From assembly GCA_028877215.1 (NCBI GenBank), contig JAPPFJ010000024.1, forward strand, positions 110,989 to 174,988: DNA of 64,000 nucleotides. Direction: 5' to 3'. This DNA is from Gemmatimonadota bacterium (GTDB taxonomy: Bacteria; Latescibacterota; UBA2968; GCA-2709665). Positions 52,339-52,520 of the stretch are shown piece by piece (positions within the stretch are counted from its first letter, which is position 1; each line of letters begins with the position of its first letter). Both the position numbers and the translations under genes were made by a program. The notes under the pieces were generated by a model. It did not search any database. It had not been told where the DNA came from and worked only from the letters and a program-made list of their open reading frames with translations.

Positions 52339-52407
52339 CTATCCATTCACAACGAAAAAAGCCGCGATCCACCTCGTGGTGAACCGCGGCCATCGCCACA
52401 CCTTCAT
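52339..52407 (-). CDS. Candidate Trp leader peptide MKVWRWPRFTTRWIAAFFVVNG upstream of TrpRS paralogue
   Basis: 22-aa ORF with three Trp codons overlapping an intrinsic terminator. Confidence 0.65.
   Translation of the reverse strand: MKVWRWPRFTTRWIAAFFVVNG
52355..52390 (-). terminator. Attenuator/intrinsic terminator between trpS and TrpRS paralogue
   Basis: Minus strand GCCGCGGTTCACC-ACGA-GGTGGATCGCGGC-TTTTTT: 13-bp stem (two G-U) and T6. Confidence 0.85.
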
Positions 52408-52520
52408 GCACACATCATCCGGTGGCGGACGCACGGTTCCCGCTGCGCAAAACCACCAGCGCTGAAGGGAATTCGCCACGCTACCGAACAAACACCTCGA
52501 ATGCCGCCCCATGAATATCC

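What the first reader, a model, noticed from the sequence alone, without database searches (positions are those of the whole stretch)
52339..52520. Second Trp-rich leader plus terminator in front of the TrpRS paralogue
The ~270-nt gap between trpS and the paralogue contains MKVWRWPRFTTRWIAAFFVVNG*. Its first two Trp codons lie immediately before a 13-bp terminator stem, and the third lies inside the 3' arm. A ribosome stalled at the Trp codons would physically mask the 5' arm of the terminator, so no separate antiterminator would be needed. Upstream, in the same frame, is another WW. With the trpS leader this makes two serial Trp-sensing attenuators sharing a W-R-W core. Attenuation of an auxiliary TrpRS gene is described in Streptomyces, so the concept has precedent, but this serial double arrangement looks unusual.
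Basis: partly seen in the sequence, partly recalled or inferred. Interest (0 to 1): 0.85.

Follow-up and report, generated by a model that had tools for sequence, protein, structure and literature searches.

The report
Conserved second tryptophan attenuator, redrawn

Summary
In detail: MKVWRWPRFTTRWIAAFFVVNG* and a strong terminator (14-bp stem, 52391-52360) lie on the minus strand between trpS and a TrpRS paralogue. MKVWRW is not a separate peptide but the end of a longer ORF (ATG 52512, Shine-Dalgarno overlapping the trpS stop).

Seventeen genomes of the order, in two families, carry the element upstream of this paralogue: RWW(W), 7-8 codons, PPP, a further Trp codon, terminator. A UGGUGG:CCACCA hairpin and a covarying terminator are conserved. 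The core (52469-52354) is 98% identical to a sister species; the 54 nt before it are 61%. Same-genus genomes without the paralogue lack the element, so it is not trpS's own terminator. trpS has its own classical Trp leader, and in most of the other family two leaders stand in series before the paralogue alone, so the serial arrangement is real.

"No antiterminator" is doubtful. No in-frame stop separates the Trp codons from the terminator in 17/17. A polyproline pause may replace it; that is inference. Trp dependence is untested.

The parts
53791..53819 (-). sigma-70-like promoter TTGACA-17-TATCGT upstream of the trpS leader
   Evidence: 10 of 12; the only promoter-like site found in 50500-54500, about as many as chance gives; conserved in the f1 upstream alignment
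53674..53751 (-). trpS leader ORF MAARYENSGSWRWHDFNRTGRLTAC* (classical, with stop)
   Evidence: conserved in G001, G002, G003, G005; absent from G004
53619..53643 (-). trpS leader terminator
52521..53597 (-). trpS, tryptophanyl-tRNA synthetase
   Evidence: TIGR00233 311.7 bits, above cut-off
52519..52522 (-). Shine-Dalgarno GAGG of the second leader ORF, overlapping the trpS stop codon
   Evidence: sequence; 6 nt before ATG 52512
52339..52512 (-). second leader ORF, MGRHSRCLFGSVANSLQRWWFCAAGTVRPPPDDVCMKVWRWPRFTTRWIAAFFVVNG*; no stop before the terminator
   Evidence: frame evidence
52354..52469 (-). conserved attenuator core (98.3% identical to G001)
   Evidence: covariance model R1 hits
52453..52458 (-). 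primary tandem Trp codons (segment 1)
   Evidence: TGGTGG in 17/17
52420..52428 (-). segment 2, CCGCCACCG, complementary to the Trp codons and coding in frame for PPP
   Evidence: PPP in 16/17, PTP in G005
52401..52468 (-). 1:2 hairpin
   Evidence: minimum-energy fold; core pairs counted
52381..52439 (-). predicted antiterminator, pairing with 52391-52381 of the terminator 5' arm
   Evidence: -27.1 kcal/mol in the nascent transcript; not better than shuffles in this genome
52390..52398 (-). second Trp codon pair (W-R-W), at the terminator base
   Evidence: in-frame Trp codon between PPP and terminator in 17/17 genomes
52354..52391 (-). intrinsic terminator and U run
   Evidence: covariation; z = -5.2 for the stem
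51384..52250 (-). short TrpRS paralogue ('TrpRS II'), KMSKS region missing
   Evidence: dN/dS 0.37 against G001

Best explanation
The region is the second of two ribosome-mediated Trp attenuators in series on the trpS-TrpRS II transcript. A ribosome entering at 52512 (probably coupled to termination of trpS translation) meets the tandem Trp codons at 52458-52453. If Trp-tRNA is scarce it stalls there, covers segment 1, and frees segment 2 (52428-52420), which can join a helix with the terminator's 5' arm; RNA polymerase then reads into TrpRS II. If Trp-tRNA is plentiful the ribosome runs on over segment 2, the competing helix cannot form, and the terminator does. A second in-frame Trp checkpoint at 52398-52390 would let a ribosome stalled there cover the 5' arm directly. 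Shown: sequence, conservation, frame conservation, hairpin and terminator conservation, linkage to TrpRS II. Inferred: Trp dependence, direction of the response, co-transcription with trpS, the antiterminator step, and the role of PPP.
For: Seventeen genomes carry TGGTGG, 30 or 33 nt to the CCRCCACC-type segment, then a terminator, upstream of TrpRS II; the strict f2 pattern occurs in 14 of 48 genomes of the class, all of them f2, always at one site, with no control matches. Core identity 98.3% against 61% and 84.5% in the flanks. Terminator helix: 100% of cells paired, 4 pairs changed on both sides; whole structure 97.8% paired, 0/500 shuffles as high. UGGUGG:CCACCA pairs in 94% of cells. No stop between Trp codons and terminator in frame 0 (0/17) against 7 and 6 in the other frames. 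In-frame Trp codon before the terminator 17/17 against 0 and 1. Element and TrpRS II are absent together in G002 and G003. The sister family f4 uses Trp leaders before trpE.
Against: No expression data. The antiterminator of this genome ranks 35/100 against shuffles and that of G005 95/100; support comes from G019, G016, G007, G010, G020 and G015. The 1:2 pairs hardly vary, so they carry little covariation. An ORF that runs through the terminator should by itself favour readthrough when translation keeps pace. Lineages are few (about 6-8 independent).
Confidence: 0.82

Rival explanations
1. It is simply the transcription terminator of trpS, and the Trp codons are a by-product of its GGTGG arms.
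For: It lies 130 nt after the trpS stop with a strong stem and U run; the third Trp codon (in the 3' arm) does follow from the GGTGG arm and is not conserved.
Against: G002 and G003, same genus with trpS 97% and 94% identical, have no such element after trpS and no TrpRS II. In the other family the element sits before TrpRS II although trpS is elsewhere in the genome. The tandem Trp codons and the frame are conserved.
Confidence: 0.05
2. One reading: a 22-aa peptide starting at 52407, with stalling at W-R-W masking the terminator and no antiterminator.
For: An in-frame Trp codon lies before the terminator in every genome, ending 9 nt or less from the stem in G000, G001, G005, G019, G016, G020 and G015; the antiterminator is not statistically better than shuffles in this genome.
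Against: ATG 52407 has no Shine-Dalgarno and lies inside the 3' side of the conserved 1:2 hairpin; the frame and the Trp codons upstream are conserved in all genomes; in genus g4 the downstream Trp codon is 17-21 nt from the stem, too far to mask much of it.
Confidence: 0.08
3. The element responds to Pro-tRNA or EF-P as well as, or instead of, Trp, through the PPP codons.
For: PPP in frame in 16/17; three consecutive Pro codons in mgtP sense proline (PMC3641672); polyproline ahead of the pyrL terminator raises termination without EF-P (PMC5021804).
Against: CCACC is explained by pairing to UGG codons, and G005 reads PTP; in f4 trpE leaders a similar GCGTCC motif is read in different frames.
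Confidence: 0.05

Closest known systems
Predicted attenuator before trpS2 of Streptomyces avermitilis (PMC1262725), and the attenuated auxiliary TrpRS gene of Streptomyces (Vecchione and Sello 2010, seen here only as a reference in PMC4787780)
   Same: Trp-codon leader and terminator before a second TrpRS gene
   Different: Different phylum; here two attenuators in series, no leader stop before the terminator in the second, and the downstream protein has lost KMSKS in this lineage
Classical trp operon attenuators (E. coli trpL, from own knowledge; Corynebacterium and Streptomyces trp leaders, PMC1262725)
   Same: Tandem Trp codons, 1:2 hairpin, terminator, predicted competing helix
   Different: No stop codon between Trp codons and terminator; in-frame PPP on segment 2; extra Trp codon before the terminator; no Rfam match
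Salmonella mgtCBR tandem attenuators (PMC3641672)
   Same: Two leader ORFs in series before one gene; three consecutive Pro codons in one of them
   Different: There the two sense different signals (ATP, proline); here both leaders carry Trp codons
E. coli pyrBI leader (pyrL; discussed in PMC5021804)
   Same: Leader ORF and terminator overlap, so a close-following ribosome can prevent termination
   Different: pyrL responds to nucleotide supply through polymerase speed (own knowledge); here Trp codons are the conserved feature

Membership tests
Ribosome-mediated amino-acid attenuator (trpL type) | Short leader ORF with consecutive regulatory codons upstream of a gene concerned with that amino acid | tested here: met
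   TGGTGG in frame in 17/17 before TrpRS II
Ribosome-mediated amino-acid attenuator (trpL type) | Intrinsic terminator between leader codons and gene | tested here: met
Ribosome-mediated amino-acid attenuator (trpL type) | Segment complementary to the regulatory-codon segment (1:2 hairpin) | tested here: met
   energy z-scores range from -5.5 to 0, so the evidence is conservation rather than energy
Ribosome-mediated amino-acid attenuator (trpL type) | Antiterminator that competes with the terminator | tested here: inconclusive
   Predicted in most lineages; better than shuffles in some, not in G000, G001 or G005
Ribosome-mediated amino-acid attenuator (trpL type) | Leader ORF ends before the terminator (typical of the type; whether it is strictly defining is arguable) | tested here: not met
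   0/17 have an in-frame stop before the terminator; met by the trpS leader and by the first f2 leader. Hence filed as a variant that works like this type.
Ribosome-mediated amino-acid attenuator (trpL type) | Readthrough depends on Trp-tRNA level | not testable with these tools
   needs expression data
Curated Rfam families (release 15) | Match to a covariance model | tested here: not met
   no hit at gathering level in the window or up to E = 5 in 51300-53950
pyrBI-type coupling attenuator | Leader ORF overlaps the terminator | tested here: met
pyrBI-type coupling attenuator | Nucleotide-sensitive polymerase pause in the leader | not tested
   none
Active TrpRS (paralogue) | KMSKS motif | tested here: not met
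   alignment A2: not recognisable in G000 and G001; KMGKS or KMSKS present in the full-length f2 copies aligned

The most novel reading that the evidence does not exclude
A stop-less Trp attenuator: one leader ORF runs through the whole switch, carries two Trp checkpoints (one on segment 1, one before the terminator), and uses an in-frame polyproline pause on segment 2 in place of the usual stop codon to hold the ribosome while the terminator forms.
Probability: 0.3. Interest if true: 0.72.

Novelty: new variant of a known kind. Interest (0 to 1): 0.55.

Why it matters
It documents what looks like Trp attenuation of synthetase genes in an uncultured lineage outside the phyla in which I know it to be described, with two attenuators in series before the same gene in two families. 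If the stop-less design works as proposed, it would show that a nascent-chain pause can replace a stop codon in attenuation and would tie EF-P status to amino-acid sensing. That the attenuator is kept in front of a TrpRS copy that has lost a catalytic motif raises the testable question of what a Trp-starvation-controlled pseudo-synthetase does.

Tried and rejected
Rfam at gathering and at E up to 5: nothing. Folding the whole 270-nt gap: not more stable than shuffles (z = -0.77), so conservation and not energy carries the case. Weak R1 model hits outside the order: one (G028) precedes a TrpE-like ORF and reads as a Trp leader; the others examined lie in or beside other genes. The second R1 hit in the own genome (C6:219401) lies inside an ORF and is taken as chance. 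W-R-W as a conserved shared motif: rejected. A leader stop overlapping the TrpRS II start in several genomes was considered as translational coupling but not pursued; about a third would be expected by frame alone. No structure prediction was run for the paralogue.

Full report
What is there. On the minus strand of the window hemB (54864-53872) is followed by trpS (53597-52521) and a short TrpRS paralogue (52250-51384), called TrpRS II here.

The reading frame that contains MKVWRW is open from a GTG at 52524; ATG 52512 has a GAGG six bases upstream that overlaps the trpS stop. From there it reads MGRHSRCLFGSVANSLQRWWFCAAGTVRPPPDDVCMKVWRWPRFTTRWIAAFFVVNG*. In relatives the conserved part is RWW(W), 7 or 8 codons, PPP, then a Trp codon and the terminator.

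Conservation. TrpRS II is present in three genomes of the window's own family (f1: G000, G001, G005) and in fourteen of f2, in the same order. In f2 it lies away from trpS, and the element stands upstream of it there too. Seventeen copies were aligned (A1). The strict pattern TGGTGGN{20,36}CCACCACCGGAT is found in 14 of 48 genomes of the class, all f2, one site each, with no control matches. A covariance model built from A1 finds the element in every genome with TrpRS II and, cut off at a contig end, in G018; the seventeen match by construction. Between G000 and G001 the core 52469-52354 is 98.3% identical over 116 nt; the 54 nt before it 61.1%; the 103 nt after it 84.5%; TrpRS II 88.9%; trpS 90.9%. 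The N-terminal part of the leader ORF thus diverges freely, but without indels or stops between these two.

It is not trpS's own terminator. G002 and G003, the same genus, have trpS 97% and 94% identical, no TrpRS II, no match to the leader model, and after the trpS stop quite different sequence; it appears to run straight into the ADP-ribosylglycohydrolase gene (by eye, from shared sequence with 50424-51395). Leader and TrpRS II behave as one cassette.

Structure. Terminator: every cell paired, four pairs with changes on both sides; stem z-scores from -2.7 to -7.7. The UGGUGG:CCACCA pairing holds in 94% of cells but varies little, so it is weak evidence by covariation; individual folds extend it with lineage-specific outer stems. 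A competing antiterminator appears when the RNA is folded as if a ribosome covered the first Trp codons: in f2 CCACC-A-CCGG...UGGCG with CGCUA-CCGG-AA-GGUGG, in the window GAACCGUG...CGCCACC with GGUGUGGCG...CGCGGUUC. Against shuffled upstream sequence it stands out in G019 and G016 (2/100), and in G015, G010, G007 and G020 at one or both lengths, but not in G000, G001 or G005. I treat it as likely in general and unproven for the window.

Frame evidence. Between the tandem Trp codons and the terminator stem, frame 0 has a stop in 0/17 genomes, the other frames in 7 and 6; a rough product over eight representatives is 9e-4, and these are not fully independent. WW-to-PPP spacing is 30 or 33 nt in all, a multiple of three, while the distance to the terminator also changes by single bases; this may rest on a single 3-nt indel. 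An in-frame Trp codon lies between PPP and the stem in 17/17, against 0 and 1 in the other frames (product over eight representatives 3e-5, same caveat). These facts argue that the ORF is translated through the switch.

The missing stop. The trpS leader and the first f2 leader end before their terminators in the ordinary way, as does the one trpE leader of family f4 whose terminator was examined; other f4 trpE leader ORFs also end in a stop. The TrpRS II leader does not. A ribosome running on just behind the polymerase should prevent the terminator from forming, as in pyrBI. Elgamal et al. (PMC5021804) showed that a polyproline stall before the pyrL terminator increases termination when EF-P is absent. 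An in-frame PPP lying on segment 2 could therefore do what the stop codon does in trpL: hold the ribosome on segment 2, away from the terminator. This is inference. Against it: G005 reads PTP, CCACC is needed anyway to pair with UGG codons, and in wild-type E. coli six prolines had little effect in that study.

The serial arrangement. In f1 the order is promoter, Trp leader 1, trpS, Trp leader 2, TrpRS II; the trpS leader is conserved in G001, G002, G003 and G005 but not G004. In f2 genus g4 (ten genomes) and in G019 both leaders stand before TrpRS II itself: a first leader (...VRGWWWRAIVWVC* and variants) with its own terminator, then the second, roughly 150-230 nt further on between Trp codons. 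In G019 the first leader's helix bases differ in a complementary way (GGCCGAC with GTCGGCC in place of GCTGAC with GTCAGC; by eye). G015, G016 and G020 show no such first leader close upstream. So polymerase passes two Trp leaders before TrpRS II in members of both families. Tandem attenuators are known (mgtCBR, PMC3641672), and attenuators before a second TrpRS gene are known or predicted in Streptomyces (PMC1262725; Vecchione and Sello 2010, cited in PMC4787780).

The gene under control. TrpRS II in the window has no recognisable KMSKS; in G001 the HIGH motif reads HQRD. Several f2 copies have lost the same region. It is evolving under relaxed but purifying constraint (dN/dS 0.37, trpS 0.086). 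It is probably not an active synthetase in this lineage.

Verdict. Real, conserved, a Trp attenuator by anatomy, in series with another. Mechanism mostly classical; the stop-less ORF with two Trp sites is the unusual part. Regulation by Trp has not been shown.

Noticed in passing
51384-52250 and proteins P0004-P0008, P0022, P0023: TrpRS II has lost its KMSKS region in f1 and in several f2 genomes, while the C-terminal stretch (LVRDILHLGGSDARIEGQRTLELVKEAVGLRY) stays conserved: a possible regulatory pseudo-synthetase.
   Followed up: partly
L105 1501-1613 (-), and loci L117-L139: Family f4 of the same class has conserved Trp leader peptides (such as MKLRSAHSNRWWRSWPYTWSNAGVRPPHSA*) upstream of trpE-like genes.
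   Followed up: partly
L066 (G015:C47:234875-235387): The TrpRS II match of G015 contains three TAG stops, so it looks like a decaying gene, yet its leader is intact.
   Followed up: no
L053 1-2625: Four near-identical tandem ORFs (MMATAVEELQAQQNAFQTRQADFEKGQGELKKGQ...) lie upstream of TrpRS II in G007.
   Followed up: no
50424-51395 (+): ADP-ribosylarginine hydrolase-like gene (NF041672, 372 bits, below its cut-off of 490), convergent with TrpRS II.
   Followed up: no
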